Of a stretch of DNA of 64,000 nt, positions 49,201 to 56,319 are shown piece by piece. The position numbers and the translations under genes are program-made. Source of the stretch: Polytrichum commune (taxonomy: Eukaryota > Streptophyta > Polytrichopsida > Polytrichales > Polytrichaceae); assembly GCA_950295325.1 (NCBI GenBank), contig OX485805.1, forward strand, positions 36,319,501 to 36,383,500. The letters are read 5' to 3'. Position 1 is the first letter of the stretch, and each line of letters starts with the position of its first letter. The notes below the pieces were generated by a model. It was given only the letters and a program-made list of their open reading frames with translations, was not told the DNA's origin and ran no database searches.

Positions 49201-49826
49201 TCAACTTCACTCTTTCTCCAAAGCTATACACTTTCAAAGTACTCAGGTACACAACACATCATGACAATCGAGACCACTGTAGTTGATATACTCGATAAAT
49301 TTATATGTCCAAGCATTGTCCCTTATCACAAGAAATATAGTTGCATGACAATAATCCACTCACAATCCACAAACATCGTTTTTTTTCATTAACTTCCATT
49401 CAACACCATGGCCGGTCCTAACAACCTCAAAATTCTATCCTATTACCTTCCTCTTCCTCACACTAACTTGCACTTGCACTCAAAGCTCTCACACATCTCT
49501 TTCTTGGAGCTCCTTCAGCTCTCTGACGCTTCTCCTGCTTCCTTATTGCCTATTAACCTTCTTTCGGCGGCTATACTTGGTGGTTAGTGTCTTGAATGGT
49601 TATAATTGTTTTTACTTGTTTGTCGTCTTTCATCCTCACCTAATAACCCTTTTCACATTCTATCTATGGTTTTTTACTCAATGCTAAGGCTTACGGATGA
49701 ATATGAAAAACTATAGTAAAAAAAAATTTAGATTACAGTTCACAATATTAGCATGTCAATGCAAATTATTATTTGCATTATGGCTTGCCCCCCGGCCTCC
49801 ACCCGCTTCCCCCCTCCCTTGGTCCC
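46300..49826. other. No gene recognised
   Basis: Short frames only. A 59-residue frame starts at about 49408 (MAGPNNLKILSYYLPLPHTN) in somewhat GC-richer sequence but has no known match. The 48.9-49.6 kb part is CT-rich and could be an old repeat. Confidence 0.4.
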
Positions 49827-49850
49827 TGCTAGAGTGGGGAGTGCTATCTT

Positions 49851-49920
49851 GTGAGCGGTGAGCAGTGAGCGGTGAGCGATGAGCGGTAATTTGTGAGAGG
49901 TGAAGAAAACAAAATATTTG
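49851..49920. repeat. Left subterminal GTGAGCG array
   Basis: GTGAGCGGTGAGCAGTGAGC continues GGTGAGCGATGAGCGGTAAT and then GTGAGAGGTGAAG. The inverted counterpart lies at about 56221-56293 (GCTCAC/GCTCAT series). Subterminal arrays of this type are usual binding sites for the element's own transposase; that role here is inferred. Confidence 0.85.
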
Positions 49921-50499
49921 GTAATAGGACCCCTAGTATCCTATAACCGTGGCCTAAAGAAATAAATTTTTAGGGTTCAATAATAAGAAGATTGGGGAGG
50001 ACAAACAATATGAATGCTAGATTGCAAGTAGTGAGCAATGAAAAATACCAATATGTACATGACTCAGGGTTGCTAGTATGTGAGCATGCGAGTGTGAACC
50101 TGTGAGCCTTCAATTTTTTCCTGGTTATGGTTTGTAAATCCGTTGGGGGCCTATGATTGTGGAATTACATGTAAGGGTCTATAGTCCAAATGAACAACAA
50201 ATGAGAATGTTGCTATAACAATTTTGTATAAAAAATGAACTAATATACATTCAACTGTTGAGATAATAATAATGTAATTGGAGACAATGTGTAAGCAAAC
50301 TCATGTTGAAAACAAGTGTAGCATGTTAGAATGTCTCACTATAATACACATCAATGTAAAATTTGAATACATCATAACACCATCATGAGGGTGACATTTA
50401 CGAAGTGCAAAACATAAAGAACAACAAAAGTGAATTGTAGATATAAATCGGGTAGTAGATTTAAATTATTGAAGTTTTTAGGAATCAAATATAAAAAAT

Positions 50500-52124
50500 A
50501 AAAATAGTGGACACATGATCCATACCATCTGGAAGATAGTTGATGGACACATGCATATTAGCCACAGTAGCATCAAAGAGCTTATCGGTCTCAATAGCCA
50601 ACTGCCAAATACAAAATAAAGATTAGAAAAATTGAATGATTGAAAAAATATCTTTTTTTCAAAAAACATAGACAAAAAATTATCACTTGAGCCCAGTAAG
50701 TAGCTTTATCAAGTCACTTAGGAAACTCTATATCATTCCATTTTGGTTTCGGAAACTTGAGAGCCTCACGAAGAGTAGATGAACTGTTCCACCTCTCAAG
50801 CCACTTAATCTTCATAGATGTATCCATTGCCAAAGTTGCTAACATCCAAAGTTTTTTTTGAATCATCTTAAGATTCTCATCGTGAGTTTCATAATGAGAC
50901 TTCACCTGCTTTAAGAACATAGGAGAATGTCTAGGATCTACAATGAAAAGTTGTTTCTTTAGTTCCAAATGGGAAGTCAATCCTACCCTCTCCACAGCTT
51001 TGGAAACAAATTCACCCACTGCACTTAAAGTCCAATGTGTAGAATCAAGGTATTTCTCATAAAATTTCCTTTGAGCAGTAACAGCAACATCTCCCAACTA
51101 TTGCTACACCAAGGAAAAAACATATAAGAGTATGATAAATCACATATAATAAAAATAAGATGTAATAAAACATATAGTTATAGAATTCAAAATAAAAAAA
51201 TATATATATACAAGAAAAAAAAAACGTGAAAAACTAATACTTTAGAAAAATAACCTAACATAGAAATCCATTAAAAGCCTCAACAGTAAAAAAGAACCAA
51301 GTTCTATATTTGGATTTTTATTTGGCATCAGCGGCAGTAACATCTTCTTTGAAGACAACTTTTTTAAAATATGAAAGTGGTTGTCCAACAATGCTTTGAA
51401 TGCGGCAAAGCTTATGAACAAGATTCGTACAAATATGAGATTCTTAGTTCCTCATGACAAAATAAAACAACCAATGATAAGCCACGGAAAATAAATATAC
51501 AATAAAAAAATAAACTTAAAAGAAAACCAAATGAACCGAACAAATAAAAAGAGAAGAATGAAGGAATTACCACTTCATGTAAAGCTGCCAACATGGTTGC
51601 AATATCTCCCTTGACGTCCAAAATAATACTTTCAACAGCATAATGTCAAGCATGATCATGTATATGATCTCGATTAATAATGGGCAACCATGTTTGCAAA
51701 CGGTGGTTTCCATCCCACATCATAAACATTTTGCGAGAGAAAACTTTGAGGTCCTCATCAGTTTGCAATATTTTCTCAAAGGCATCATTTGTCCGTACCC
51801 AATTTTCACTCCACGATTCAATGATATTATCGGTAACATCTATTGTTTTCCCCTCATTGTTTTCCAAGGCCACGTAAAAAACCCCGTTGCCCTCCATATA
51901 ACCACAAGCAACAAAATGTGCAGTCAGGTTCATAACGTTATTTTTCAAAAAAGACCTAACAACATACAATGCAATCATTCGACATAGTGGAATATTGAAT
52001 TTTAATTTTGCCCTTGGTTGATACCTCAACCGTTCAAGACGGGAAGACATGTTGACAGTTTCTTTCTTAAAAATGCATGCAATTGTAATTCCAATTGATC
52101 TTCAGAAAGATGTACAACTTCCAT
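50500..52124 (-). pseudogene. Element-borne multi-exon gene, 'WDGNHRLQTW' family, broken
   Basis: On the minus strand the text starts MEVVHLSEDQLELQLHAF (ATG at 52124). After a frameshift in a lysine-rich stretch come LERLRYQPRAKLKFNIPL, VTDNIIESWSENWVRTNDAF, FMMWDGNHRLQTWLPIINRD, a TGA where Trp would fit, then HYAVESIILDVKGDIATMLA. Later pieces are IQSIVGQPLSYFKKVVFKED (about 51400), EKYLDSTHWTLSAVGEF to PKPKWNDIEFPK (51097-50714) with a TGA just after it, and LAIETDKLFDATVANMHVSI (about 50580) behind a TTTGGCAG acceptor. Intron-like AT-rich spacers separate the pieces. I know similar proteins from moss and fern genomes but no function for them. Linkage to a transposase suggests an element-encoded accessory protein. 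Confidence 0.6.
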
Positions 52125-52299
52125 ATCTAAATCACAAAAATATCATCCATATGAAAGATAAAACTAAATTAAAAGAAATATATACATATGAAAGAAATCA
52201 CATATACAAACTAAAATAATATACAAAAATATTTATGAAAGTGAGAGTATACATAAAGAAAAACCACATATAGAATAGAATCTGAAATTTCAATATGGA

Positions 52300-52994
52300 T
52301 GGCCGTTAACGGCCACCCTTGTTGGAGGAAAAAAAATGAAGGAAATGAGTGTATACATGAAGAAATATACATATATAGAAAATAATATAAAATTTTAATA
52401 AAGGTGGAAATGAGTGCATATATGAAAAAAATACATATATAGAAAAGAATATGAAATTTTAATAAGGGTGAAAATGAGTGTATACATGAAAAAATAAACT
52501 TATATACCAATAAATTTGAGATGCAACCAAGGGTGGCCATTAACAGCCACACTTTTAGATGGAACAGACATAAGAAATATATGTATATATATGATTTTAT
52601 TTCAAAGAAATTATGTTGTTAAATGAAAACTGAAACCCAGGAAGGGGTACCCTAAACTAGAAAATAGAAGTTAGCATCATACAAAAGGTGGCCGTTGACG
52701 GCCACCTTAAACTAGAACACAGAAGTTGGCATCATAAAAAGGGTGGCCGTTAACGGCCACACTTTTAGATGAAACAGACATAAGAAATATATGTATATAT
52801 GTGATTTTATTTCAAAGAAATTATGTTGTTAAATGAAGACTGAAACCCAAAAAGGGGTACCATAAACTAGAAAATAGAAGTTAGCATCATACAAAGGGTA
52901 GCCGTTGACGGCCACCCTAAACTAGAACACAGAAGTTGGCATCATAAAAAGGGTGGCCGTTAACGGCCACACTTTTAGATGGAACAAACATAAG

Positions 52995-53065
<71 letters not shown>

Positions 53066-53180
53066 ATTTCATTTCAAAGAAAATATGTTGTTAAATGAAG
53101 ACTGAAACCCAAGAACGGCCACCCTAAACTAGAACATAGAAGTTGGCATCATAAAAAGGGTGGCCGGTAACGGCTACCCA
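52300..53180. repeat. Palindrome-bearing tandem repeat between the divergent genes
   Basis: GTGGCCGTTAACGGCCAC, a perfect 18 bp palindrome, or close variants occur at about 52298, 52531, 52687, 52742, 52897, 52951, 53113 (half) and 53158. From 52531 they sit in a tandem unit of about 210 bp (starts 52531, 52741, 52951) that also carries AGATGGAACAGACATAAGAA, TTTCAAAGAAATTATGTTGT and AACACAGAAGTTGGCATCAT. The third unit is expanded by an (AT)n run. Confidence 0.9.
52997..53062. repeat. (AT)n microsatellite
   Basis: About 65 bp of uninterrupted alternating AT in the third 210 bp unit. The first two units have only ATATATGTATATAT at the same place, so this is a local expansion. Confidence 0.95.
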
Positions 53181-53639
53181 TTTGGAAGAGAAATACACCT
53201 TGATTTGAGTCACTTTCCGGAGTTGCTATAACGTATCCAAATATTCTAATTTATTTCCGAAAAAATTCAAGTGCATAGATTATAGCCTTGCCATTCACTC
53301 CAATTTTTTTCAGAATTTTTGGAGATGATATCAATTTTACATAAATTACCAAATTCTACTGAAATTAATATGATTAGATTTCCTGCATAAAATCTTTATT
53401 TTTTGAAGATTTTAGAAGAATCTAAGATGCTCTAATTGTTTTTTTGGCTTTAAAACATGCAAAACAAAATCATTTTATTCATGCTATATACCGTTGGAAT
53501 CATATTCTCGGCGTGCACAATATTGTATACATTACATACCTCTAAATTTATTTTGATTTTAAAATTATTTTCTTACGATTTCGTTCGTACAACCTACCTC
53601 CATCTCCGCCTCAGAAGATTGTTCTTCTTTTTCGTATTG

Positions 53640-55403
53640 TGTGGCGTATTTCTTCATGGTTGCACGTGAGCGTACATGTCTTTTCCATTGGTCTACGAGT
53701 TTGGATAAGATGACCCAAAAATATATCAAACCATCCTTGCAGTGTCAACACAAGTAATTATGCAAGGATTACAATGACGCGAAAACAATGGACGACGCCG
53801 AGACTAAGTATCATGTGATTCGTTCTTGATGGTTGTCATCCGGATCTGCCTCGGAAGAAGGCATCCTTGGCCTTTCAGAGTAGTTGGGTTTTTAGCACTT
53901 TCGTTACAGACAATGAGGTGGTCATATGTTATTTGTAAGTACATATCAAAATTCAATATTCAATGTCATTCATTTTTCTTCTATTATTATATATATCTTA
54001 TATTTTTATTATCCTCATATTTATGTGTTGTTCATAGGATATGACAATAGAACAACGTGCGGAAATGCCAACATGTAACCTTGCAGAGACTGTACACAAA
54101 AAATGGCTCCAACAGTCCGGCAACAAGATGACTTGTTTATATGAAGCTACAGTGGATGATATGATCCGTGCCTTCATGCAAATTGCAAATTATTGGACAT
54201 GGTTGAAAGGGAGTCTGATGGTAGAGGTATTGATTCGGCATCCTTGAAACTCAAAGCGGCTGCCAGGTGTGGAGATCCAAAAATGTTGGCTGATGCCATG
54301 AAGTCTTATCTAGGGGCAGAAGACGTCAACACTAGAGATTGTGCATTGGAAGGGTCAGAGCTCTTTGGTTCCACCAAACGCAAACTCAACCTATCACCGT
54401 GTGTTGATTGTGACTCTCATCGACCCGACAAAGTGAACTATTTCATTCCTCGTCCCAACACCCGAGCAACTCGTCAACGCATAGAGGAATCGTTGAATTT
54501 TGCAATTCATGGTGTGGCTCATACCACATCTATGTTAAAGACTGATTGTCTTGCTTCTAAGTGACACATTGCAAGATTGCCACCCAACTCAGCCAAACGA
54601 TGTTGGGTACTGCAGGCCATTACATGGACTATGTACAATACCAAAGTCGGGATTGGGAAACATGGCACACCTGCTCCAACATACAAAGGGCTCAGGAAGG
54701 AATTTTGCTCTCCCAACAATGTGGAGTATGAATTTTGGTTTTGCCTTGACGATATTAAGCATTGTGTGAGTGGCAGTATGAAGAAATATGTGTTGGATTG
54801 GCCTATAGTACCCAACATGTGGCCGGTGAAGATAGGTACCAATCTATCGAGAGAGGAGGTTCTAGCACTTGAAGATGCTGAATTTCAACTACAGCAAAGG
54901 GAGGCATTGTCCCCTCGTCGTAGGCTTTCAACAATCGCAACTCTTCCCAACCCTCGTTCGCATTTTTGTATGCCACCAAACCCGGACGTCCACCCTACAT
55001 TCAGGTTTGGGAAGACAGTGCGTCGTAATCCAACAGCACCGCTGGCGGATCACAAAAACAAATGGGAAAGCACCGGACTCATGGAAGATTACTATGTGGT
55101 TGGGGTCACTGCCATTCTATATCCGGGCTTTGGAGTGATAATCAATATTGTCTCCAAGCAGGATATCACCTACCATGTCACAATTGGCGACATCCCGCAT
55201 TGCACATGCCCGGATTTCACGAAAATGTCATCTCATGCATCAGGAAAAAAAGGAAAATGGGGTATTGTAAACATCTTTATTATGTGTTTAGATTTTTGTG
55301 CATGGTGGATTACGAGAGTGACAAGTTCATTTATGCACCTACATATACATATAATGAGGTCATACAACTACTTGAACTTGCTGATATTGTAAAATGTGAG
55401 TAG
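53640..55403 (+). pseudogene. Mutator-like transposase C-terminal half with SWIM zinc finger, broken
   Basis: From 53661 a frame reads VARERTCLFHWSTSLDKMTQ, YIKPSLQCQHK, LCKDYNDAKTMDDAETKYHV, WLSSGSASEEGILGLSE, HFRYRQ with five in-frame stops. After an intron-like gap, 54041-54228 gives CNLAETVHKKWLQQSGNK and VDDMIRAFMQIANYW. A frameshift near 54190 leads to SLKLKAAARCGDPKMLADAM, then after a break near 54560 a long open piece to 55260 ending VTIGDIPHCTCPDFTKMSSH. One frame over, CKHLYYVF completes CXC...CXH, the SWIM finger. The element's DDE catalytic core upstream of 53640 is not visible and seems lost. TVHKKW and SWIM together are typical of plant Mutator-like transposases; the rest of the assignment is inference. 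Confidence 0.7.
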
Positions 55404-56090
55404 TATTGCAAGTGTTCTATTAAGCAACATATATTTGAATGTCAATAAATGGCATGTTTTAGTTTGGATTATTATAACAAAAATTAGTTATGGACTGAAA
55501 GTCTTTCAAATGATTCAGTAACTTCAATTCTATTTAGACTACGACCCAACCGTGAGCGGTTTGATTGAATCACACAGATAAATAATAACAAGTTTCTAAA
55601 AATAAAAAATAATCGACAAGATTCTACGCACATCCGCGTAGTAACCTCTTCTTGGTATCCGCCTATAGATTAATCCTACTTTATCATTAGCTCAATTTGG
55701 GATAGCACCAGTCAATGTAACCAACCGGATTCGAACCTGGGTTGATCCAGACCTAATACCAGTCTCTTACACAACTCGCATCTACAGGCGGATGTCTCAA
55801 AATCTAGTACCTACCTACATATTGACTATTTCTAATATCTAATTTCCTTGCTTTTGTAGATTGTGGGCCTTAACTGAGCCCGTGAGCGGTTTGAGTGGTT
55901 CACAATTATGACACCTATATATACGTATAATGAGGTTATGCACCTACTTGAACTTGTTGGTGTTGTGAAATGTGAGTAGCTGTACAAGTGTAGGTTGTAA
56001 CTACATGTATAAGGATGTCAATAAATGACATGTATTGGTTTGGATTATTATAATAAAAATCAGCAATGGATTGAAAGTGTTTAAAATGAT
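55340..56090 (+). repeat. Direct duplication of the transposase 3' end flanking a SINE-like insert
   Basis: About 55340-55525 (ACCTACATATACATATAATG, CTTGAACTTGCTGATATTGT, AATGTGAGTAG, TTTGGATTATTATAACAAAA) is repeated at about 55908-56090 with 10-15% differences. Between them CCGTGAGCGGTTTGA is present near 55549 and again near 55881. This suggests a duplicated target or a second tandem copy. Confidence 0.65.
55590..55800 (-). repeat. Possible tRNA-derived SINE
   Basis: On the minus strand GTGTAAGAGACTGGTATTAG is followed by CCCAGGTTCGAATCCGGTTG, an arrangement like the A and B boxes of an RNA polymerase III promoter. No full cloverleaf can be folded: the T-stem has mismatches. A tRNA-derived short retroelement is the most likely reading. 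Confidence 0.35.
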
Positions 56091-56319
56091 CCATGGCAAT
56101 AGGGTCCTTTCACATGTGCTTCATTTAAAATACTGGCAATTTACAATTGAAAATATGCAATTAATTTGTCAAAATTCTGGTTATGTACCCTAAACCCGTA
56201 TGTCTTTACTAAATTTGGAGTCATTGCTCATATGTTACTGCTTATTGCTCATGTGTTACTGCTCACCGCTCACCGCTCACTGCTCATCGCTCATAAGATA
56301 GCTTCCCTCCTGCTAGAGT

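What the first reader, a model, noticed from the sequence alone, without database searches (positions are those of the whole stretch)
49836..56310. Complete 6.5 kb Mutator-like element with two divergent genes
The 9 bp duplication TGCTAGAGT, matching ends and inverted GTGAGCG arrays define the element exactly. One gene has a TVHKKW...SWIM arrangement of a Mutator-like transposase. The other is a multi-exon gene of an uncharacterised family marked by WDGNHRLQTW, transcribed the other way. A conserved second gene in a Mutator-like lineage would be a candidate for a little-described two-component transposon system.
Basis: partly seen in the sequence, partly recalled or inferred. Interest (0 to 1): 0.8.

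Follow-up and report, generated by a model that had tools for sequence, protein, structure and literature searches.

The report
Jumping gene with DNA-methylase-like partner
The stretch is a damaged copy of a plant jumping gene whose intact relatives carry, next to the gene that moves them, a second gene resembling bacterial DNA-methylating enzymes, and two versions of that second gene each travel with their own repeated mirror-image DNA signal that they may recognise.

Summary
Confirmed and extended. The window holds a transposon with intact ends (49836-56309) and a 10-bp, not 9-bp, target duplication, one of a large family in this land-plant genome. The copy is not complete: two deletions removed the region between the two genes' starts, the proposed catalytic aspartates of the SWIM transposase and the C-terminal half of the second gene.

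Long copies are 11.6-11.8 kb and carry two divergent genes. Of the 150 best SWIM-exon hits, 130 have the second gene upstream on the opposite strand; of 60 catalytic-exon hits, 55 do. The second gene (over 1,000 aa, at least seven exons) is under purifying selection (dN/dS 0.14). Its C-terminus is an N6/N4 DNA methyltransferase domain (PF01555 above cut-off in one copy), but the catalytic DPPY is replaced in all 23 copies read. The WDGNHR region looks ParB-like by motif only.

A ParB-methyltransferase gene opposite the transposase is published for a brown-algal Sola transposon. I found no report in a Mutator-like or land-plant element.

New here: second-gene cassettes appear swapped between closely similar transposases, and classes A and B each carry their own palindrome array in the first intron. 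I infer self-recognition for anti-silencing or self-marking.

The parts
49826..49835 (.). left target-site duplication CTGCTAGAGT (10 bp)
49836..56309 (.). transposon, non-autonomous derivative of class A
   Evidence: ends shared with other copies
49836..49890 (+). left end with subterminal GTGAGCG-type array
   Evidence: similar ends in class B copies
50500..50503 (.). deletion junction with 4-base overlap; about 2.3 kb with the methyltransferase exons missing
   Evidence: comparison with L023-L027
50500..50601 (-). second gene, remnant of exon 5 (first 34 of 177 aa of the query)
   Evidence: tblastn
50687..51103 (-). second gene, exon 4 (two stops in frame)
   Evidence: tblastn
51261..51452 (-). 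second gene, exon 3 (two stops in frame)
   Evidence: tblastn
51571..52008 (-). second gene, exon 2 with WDGNHRLQTW (one stop in frame)
   Evidence: tblastn; alignment A2
52529..53012 (.). tandem array between exons 2 and 1 of the second gene, unit with the palindrome GTGGCCGTTAACGGCCAC
   Evidence: genome-wide pattern search
52743..52760 (.). intact class A palindrome GTGGCCGTTAACGGCCAC
   Evidence: C3:36372243-36372260
52953..52970 (.). intact class A palindrome GTGGCCGTTAACGGCCAC
   Evidence: C3:36372453-36372470
53574..53645 (-). second gene, remnant of exon 1
   Evidence: tblastn
53645..53656 (.). second deletion junction: region between the genes, start of the second gene and residues 1-621 of the transposase first frame missing
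53656..53976 (+). transposase, remnant of exon 1 (residues 622-728 of the 742-residue frame, of which the last 14 or so are intron in the intact gene; 5 stops in the aligned stretch)
   Evidence: tblastn; exon end
54038..55400 (+). transposase exon 2 with NLAETVHKKW (proposed catalytic E) and SWIM-like CxC...CxH; frameshifts and one stop
56221..56309 (-). right end with inverted subterminal array (21-bp units)
56310..56319 (.). right target-site duplication CTGCTAGAGT (10 bp)

Best explanation
The window copy is a non-autonomous remnant of a two-gene, Mutator-like transposon family. Fuller members encode (1) a two-exon transposase with D, D, E and SWIM-like motifs, presumably acting at the GTGAGCG-type subterminal arrays seen in classes A, B and D, and (2), divergently from the region between them, a protein of over 1,000 aa with a basic N-terminus, a WDGNHR region that looks ParB-like, and a C-terminal N6/N4 DNA-methyltransferase-fold domain with a converted active site. 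Proposed mechanism: protein 2 binds the class-specific palindromes arrayed in its own first intron and, through its methyltransferase-fold domain, changes the chromatin or methylation state of its own element, most likely to escape host silencing. Gene-2 cassettes are exchanged between elements with closely similar transposases, which diversifies target recognition. Shown: anatomy, linkage, methyltransferase homology, selection on gene 2, class-specific arrays (A and B), mosaic structure of the elements. Inferred: ParB-type fold, binding to the palindromes, anti-silencing.
For: Linkage: 130 of 150 and 55 of 60. Methyltransferase homology: PF01555 37.5 bits, cut-off 26.7, in L032; 20.5-22 bits in L003, L018 and L028; 12.3 bits in L024. 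PHROG DNA methyltransferase E 1.1e-12 in L032. Four-sequence profile against PDB: CcrM (6pbd) E 7.8e-6 over nearly full length, DpnA-type 5hfj and 5hek E 4e-6. Selection: dN/dS 0.14 over 993 codons, 113.5 synonymous to 66.5 non-synonymous changes (L003 and L018), against 0.17-0.23 for the transposase. Mosaic: A (L001, L023) and B (L003) share the left end (80%) and everything from about 0.8 kb before the transposase start to the right end (71-75% before, 90-94% after); elsewhere over gene 2 no DNA match at E 0.01. Their gene-2 proteins are about 42% identical in exon 2. Palindromes: GTGGCCGTTAACGGCCAC has 143 sites and CTGTGCGTTAACGCACAG 502, reversed controls 0. Of the first 50 listed of each, 43 lie within 6 kb of class A and 0 of class B, and 45 of class B and 0 of class A; all 43 and 45 lie 5' of gene-2 exon 2. 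The two share the core CGTTAACG; I see no further likeness between the units. Palindromes in A and B units were reached by 0 of 100 shuffles. A ParB-like plus methyltransferase protein opposite the transposase is published for an Ectocarpus Sola transposon (PMC12477816, passages).
Against: The ParB resemblance failed every sequence test: Pfam, PHROGs, PDB profile, profile-profile with real ParB domains (P 0.12). A structure prediction from the single sequence was useless (pLDDT 40.8). The methyltransferase region of L009 alone gave no Pfam family at E 10, and a single-sequence PDB search with the L003 region gave nothing. The catalytic [DNS]PP[YFW] is absent in 23 of 23 copies where the region was found, so activity may be lost. 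Class-specific palindromes are also expected from shared descent of each gene-2 half. Subfamily D shows only weak palindromes (4 or more of 100 shuffles reach them), E borderline ones (1-3 of 100); class C could not be judged, since in L009 a run of N lies there. Among very close copies dN/dS is 0.42-0.63; for the methyltransferase exons alone it is 0.26-0.66 on few changes. No expression, binding or methylation data.
Confidence: 0.5

Rival explanations
1. Protein 2 is an active N6-adenine or N4-cytosine methyltransferase that marks its own element, for example within GTTAAC, using a non-canonical active site.
For: Fit to beta-class methyltransferases along nearly the whole domain. Motif IV is conserved rather than random: D-[LIV]-P-E-[GN]-L in the 6 class D copies read. 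GTTAAC is shared by the A and B palindromes.
Against: Neither the PP pair nor, except for the Y in L025, the aromatic residue of DPPY is kept in the 23 copies; class B has QFPD without the first acidic residue.
Confidence: 0.17
2. Protein 2 is a transposition cofactor like MURB of MuDR, needed for excision or insertion.
For: Regular divergent pairing with the transposase. mudrB is a known second gene apparently required for integration (PMC6446971, passages).
Against: The transposase is little changed between A and B while gene 2 is replaced wholesale, unusual for an intimate cofactor; the gene-2 palindromes lie inside the element, not at its ends.
Confidence: 0.18
3. The palindrome arrays are hitchhiking or hairpin-forming satellites with no relation to protein 2.
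For: Association with class is expected by descent; D shows only weak and E borderline palindromes.
Against: Two otherwise unalike arrays in A and B share the core CGTTAACG within long palindromes and lie on the same side of gene-2 exon 2.
Confidence: 0.25
4. The second gene is a one-off host gene capture, as in Pack-MULEs.
For: The window copy is truncated and dead.
Against: Five gene-2 classes (A-E) read beside transposases in the same arrangement; purifying selection.
Confidence: 0.02
5. The transposase belongs to a separate DDE superfamily, not Mutator, with convergent SWIM and long target duplications.
For: PF10551 lists 142 canonical MULEs in this genome, and none of the listed places coincides with the copies studied here, by inspection. 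Profile comparison with canonical MULEs is weak, P 0.059.
Against: The weak alignment falls on the D...N.I...C.H motif; a 10-bp duplication and terminal inverted repeats fit Mutator (PMC6446971).
Confidence: 0.15

Closest known systems
ParB-like plus DNA methyltransferase accessory protein of algal transposons (Sola1-1_Ec32 of Ectocarpus; reported also from green and red algae)
   Same: Two domain types, size (1104 aa against over 1,000 aa), opposite strand to the transposase (PMC12477816, passages read)
   Different: Another transposon superfamily and host lineage; here the catalytic motif is altered, and class-specific palindrome arrays and mosaic elements are seen. I could not compare sequences: the proteins were not at hand, and the two sources cited there (Iyer 2011; Petroll 2025) are not held, so I read neither
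VANDAL elements and VANC anti-silencing proteins of Arabidopsis
   Same: Mutator-like element with an extra gene whose protein targets often form tandem repeats that vary between related elements (PMC5735166, abstract and outline)
   Different: No VANC sequence was compared here; I know of no methyltransferase domain in VANC (recall)
MuDR (mudrA/mudrB)
   Same: Two-gene Mutator-type element (PMC6446971, passages)
   Different: Second protein not compared here; in this family it is a methyltransferase-fold protein
Transposons carrying SET histone methyltransferase genes (HarbingerS and MuDR families of Phytophthora)
   Same: A MuDR-type element with an epigenetic enzyme gene (PMC12730594, passages)
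   Different: Histone methyltransferase of the SET kind, not a DNA-methyltransferase fold
Fungal transposons carrying TET/JBP dioxygenases
   Same: DNA-modification gene carried by, and exchanged among, DNA transposons (PMC12730594, passages)
   Different: Oxidation enzymes in fungal elements
Bacterial or phage ParB-methyltransferase fusions (L075, L078)
   Same: ParB_N followed by a DNA methylase domain (L075) or by a DPPY-bearing region (L078)
   Different: Canonical DPPYGV motif and recognisable ParB_N; on small contigs of this assembly, probably contaminants

Membership tests
Mutator superfamily (MULE) | target-site duplication of 8-11 bp | tested here: met
   at least 10 bp perfect in 14 of 16 copies, 9 bp in one, one not readable; range from PMC6446971
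Mutator superfamily (MULE) | terminal inverted repeats | tested here: met
   33 of 39 terminal bases match; imperfect and array-like, short for a MULE, within the 14-500 bp range given in PMC6446971
Mutator superfamily (MULE) | match to Pfam MULE PF10551 | tested here: not met
   no match in the transposase exons; whole-genome search lists 142 other places
Mutator superfamily (MULE) | DDE catalytic core with C2H motif | tested here: inconclusive
   D, D, CLFHW and NLAE invariant in 4 sequences, one from each of classes A-D; BLASTP none; profile comparison P 0.059
Mutator superfamily (MULE) | SWIM zinc finger | tested here: inconclusive
   PF04434 13 bits, cut-off 19.6, E 0.076; cysteines and histidine present by eye
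N6_N4 DNA methyltransferase (PF01555) | match above the curated cut-off | tested here: met
   L032 37.5 bits against 26.7; L003, L018, L028 20.5-22 bits and L024 12.3 bits, below it; L009 none; CcrM in PDB E 7.8e-6
N6_N4 DNA methyltransferase (PF01555) | catalytic motif [DNS]PP[YFW] | tested here: not met
   absent in 23 of 23 copies in which the region was found; not found in L029 and L074
ParB / sulfiredoxin fold | ParB_N match or fold | tested here: inconclusive
   no Pfam, PHROG, PDB or profile match; structure prediction of low confidence; GNHR invariant in 9 sequences
VANC-type anti-silencing factor | sequence homology to VANC | not tested
   no VANC sequence was at hand
VANC-type anti-silencing factor | loss of DNA methylation at own elements | not testable with these tools
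   needs methylation data

The most novel reading that the evidence does not exclude
A plant transposon lineage encodes a self-addressing epigenetic system: a ParB-like, methyltransferase-fold protein with a repurposed active site that reads a palindrome arrayed in its own first intron, with protein and palindrome evolving as an exchangeable cassette on a common transposase.
Probability: 0.4. Interest if true: 0.85.

Novelty: new variant of a known kind. Interest (0 to 1): 0.7.

Why it matters
So far as I know, few transposons carry a DNA-modification-type gene, and for the ParB-methyltransferase kind the function is only a published suggestion. This family offers many closely similar copies, five gene-2 classes and two clean class-palindrome pairings that can be swapped in vitro, so whether such proteins recognise their own element can be tested directly. 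It would also place the system in a land plant, in Mutator-like elements.

Tried and rejected
ParB fold by sequence: Pfam, PHROGs, PDB profile and profile-profile comparison all negative; kept as motif-level only. Weak Pfam matches of an acidic stretch of L003 exon 2 (NTR2 E 0.004, MRC1 E 0.02, both below cut-off) were judged compositional. Structure prediction of the window exon alone: pLDDT 40.8, not used; no fold search was run. Viral relatives of the second gene: none for exon 2, one weak methyltransferase hit, L033, not followed. Canonical MULE similarity: BLASTP none, profile weak; a PDB profile of the catalytic region gave only snake-venom proteins at E 0.004-0.005 and one weaker match, judged chance. 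Palindrome conservation in motif-selected units was not used as evidence, because units were chosen by the motif; the shuffle test on units found by period was used instead. L068, upstream of L032: no transposase ORF over 110 aa within 8 kb, so the copy with the best methyltransferase score is not itself shown to be paired; L010, of the same broad class, is, with a broken transposase. Of the transposase subfamily at about 74-78% to class C, the first 46 hits were tested and 2 had a listed gene 2 within 20 kb; one of two such loci then read, L066, has a divergent gene 2 of its own class. L012 was fetched and not used. Host name: PF01698 (LEAFY) has 4 matches, so a land plant or near relative (recall of its distribution); a moss with seven chromosomes was my guess and is untested. 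Literature searches; of what they listed, only PMC12477816 matched the kind.
Full report
WHAT IS THERE. The window copy runs from 49836 to 56309 (6474 bp) between 10-bp direct repeats CTGCTAGAGT. The same ends were scored in at least 40 left and 40 right places of the host genome (lists capped). That genome has 408 Mb, seven large contigs and LEAFY genes, so it is a land plant or near relative. Of 16 copies whose two flanks were read, 14 show a perfect duplication of at least 10 bp, one 9 bp, and one had no readable left end.

THE COPY IS A REMNANT. The two long copies read through, L003 and L004, are 11.6-11.8 kb. Compared with long class A copies the window copy lost about 2.3 kb at 50500-50503, across a 4-base overlap, removing most of exon 5 and the later exons of the leftward gene. 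It also lost the stretch at about 53645/53656: the region between the two genes' starts, the start of the leftward gene and residues 1-621 of the 742-residue first frame of the transposase, with both proposed catalytic aspartates. Remaining exons carry stops and frameshifts. Of 46 class A pairs, 35 have the two hits 2.3-3.8 kb apart and 11 lie 5.9-10.3 kb apart, so the deleted form seems to have spread, presumably moved by transposase from fuller copies (inference).

GENE 1. Fuller copies have a first open frame of 742 residues (712 codons from the ATG) and a second of 455. D (MFDHVKR), D (GFM-DSA), C/H (RTCLFHW) and E (CNLAET-HNKW) are invariant across four sequences, one from each of classes A-D. 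Pfam MULE does not match and SWIM stays below its cut-off. PF10551 lists 142 canonical MULEs in this genome, none coinciding by inspection with the copies studied here. Profile comparison with canonical MULEs from the same genome touches the right motif but is weak (P 0.059). I therefore call it Mutator-like, not a proven MULE.

GENE 2. In L003, exons 2 to 7 read 996 aa and exon 1 adds 94 aa with a basic stretch; the acceptor of exon 7 lacks AG in L003, and a further exon is likely. Exon 2 holds the WDGNHR region, in which GNHR and a W are invariant over nine sequences. The last exons form a methyltransferase domain that I proposed from the motifs (note) before the search found PF01555: E 5e-4 in L003 and none in L009; then 37.5 bits (cut-off 26.7) in L032, 22 in L018, 21.9 in L028 and 12.3 in L024. 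A single-sequence PDB search found nothing; a four-sequence profile finds CcrM (6pbd) along nearly its whole length and two DpnA-type structures, and a PHROG methyltransferase scores E 1.1e-12. The catalytic DPPY aligns with DYPD (class A; DYPY in L025), QFPD (B), EYPD (C), DIPE, DLPE or DVPE (D) and HIPE (E): none of the 23 copies in which the region was found has the canonical motif; it was not found in L029 and L074.

LINKAGE. Of the 150 best SWIM-exon hits, 130 have a gene-2 hit upstream on the other strand within 15 kb (46 class A, 84 class B), 19 have none listed and 1 is arranged otherwise. Of 60 first-exon hits, 55 are so paired; of 18 class C hits, 13 within 20 kb. Three truncated class C hits left out there: two have a class-C-like gene 2 at 8.1 and 14.9 kb, the third has a neighbouring class B one nearest. 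Chance is about 0.5% per locus. Classes C, D and E show the same divergent layout where read (L009, L010, L066). All lists are capped. In the subfamily at about 74-78% to class C, 2 of the first 46 hits were paired with gene 2s of my lists; its gene 2 may be too divergent for those lists, or absent. One of two such loci read has a gene 2.

SELECTION. Over 993 codons L003 and L018 differ by 113.5 synonymous and 66.5 non-synonymous changes, dN/dS 0.14, without stops; L019 and L004 give 0.15. Closer copies (L020, L021, L022) give 0.42-0.63 on few changes, two of them with one stop, as expected of decay after insertion. The methyltransferase exons alone give 0.26-0.66. The transposase gives 0.17-0.23.

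MOSAIC ELEMENTS. Classes A and B share the left end (80% over 192 columns) and everything from about 0.8 kb before the transposase start to the right end: 71-75% in the part before it, which reaches into exon 1 of the B gene, then 90-94%. Over the rest of gene 2 there is no DNA match at E 0.01. Transposase synonymous divergence between L001 and L003 is 0.16, while their gene-2 exon-2 proteins are about 42% identical. D (L010) against B gives the same picture: ends and transposase match at 74-81%, gene 2 not. Recombination, not age, explains this best (inference).

PALINDROMES. Between exons 1 and 2 of gene 2 lie tandem arrays: in A (L001) about 105-bp units with a 32-bp palindrome around GTGGCCGTTAACGGCCAC; in B (L003, L004) 64-bp units with a 28-bp palindrome around CTGTGCGTTAACGCACAG, and 32-bp units around GTTTGGGTCG-nn-CGACCCAAAC, which recur in the transposase intron. 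None of 100 shuffled units reached the A and B palindromes; E was borderline (1-3 of 100), D weak; C could not be judged because L009 has a run of N there. Genome-wide there are 143 and 502 exact sites, with 0 for the reversed patterns. Of the first 50 listed of each, 43 A sites lie within 6 kb of class A hits and none of class B; 45 B sites near class B and none near class A; all 43 and 45 lie 5' of exon 2. Descent alone would give class-specificity; the shared CGTTAACG core in otherwise unalike arrays is the stronger hint of a common type of binding site.

MECHANISM AND PRECEDENT. I propose that protein 2 binds these palindromes, ParB-like, and acts through its methyltransferase-fold domain on its own element, most likely against silencing, as VANC proteins do by targets that often form tandem repeats (PMC5735166, abstract and outline). 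[quoted passage not shown] Extra genes of MULEs named in PMC6446971 (passages) are mudrB, mutB, vanB and vanC; the word methyltransferase does not occur in its main text. SET histone methyltransferase genes in MuDR families of Phytophthora are named in PMC12730594 (passages). My searches listed no report of this protein in a Mutator-like or land-plant element (an open-licence library only).

Noticed in passing
L075 (C12), L076-L077 (C23), L078 (C10): Small contigs of the assembly carry bacterial or phage ParB genes; L075 is a ParB plus DNA-methylase fusion by Pfam and L078 shows ParB and a DPPY motif. GC 0.49-0.63 against 0.38 in the window, so probably contamination.
   Followed up: partly
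window:55905-55976: The last 24 residues of transposase exon 2 are present a second time, about 0.5 kb downstream of the first.
   Followed up: no
window:52997-53062: A perfect (AT)33 microsatellite lies at the edge of the palindrome-bearing array.
   Followed up: no
window:59454-60131: 225-aa open frame with a stretch reminiscent, from memory, of Tigger/jerky-type transposases (NCWRKSAILP); no Pfam match at E 0.01.
   Followed up: partly
C53:13587-20631 and C2:19221784-19228828: A copy of the element on the small contig C53 gives the same scores as one on C2 with each of four probes; possibly an unmerged haplotype or duplicate contig.
   Followed up: no
L066:5550-6721 and L067:5561-6477: Subfamily E carries a 295-bp tandem array with GTGTCTCGGTsCCGAGACAC palindromes, a possible third palindrome type.
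   Followed up: partly
L003 against L018, gene-2 exons: Synonymous divergence is 0.34 in exon 2 but about 0.06 in the methyltransferase exons, suggesting recombination within gene 2 itself.
   Followed up: no
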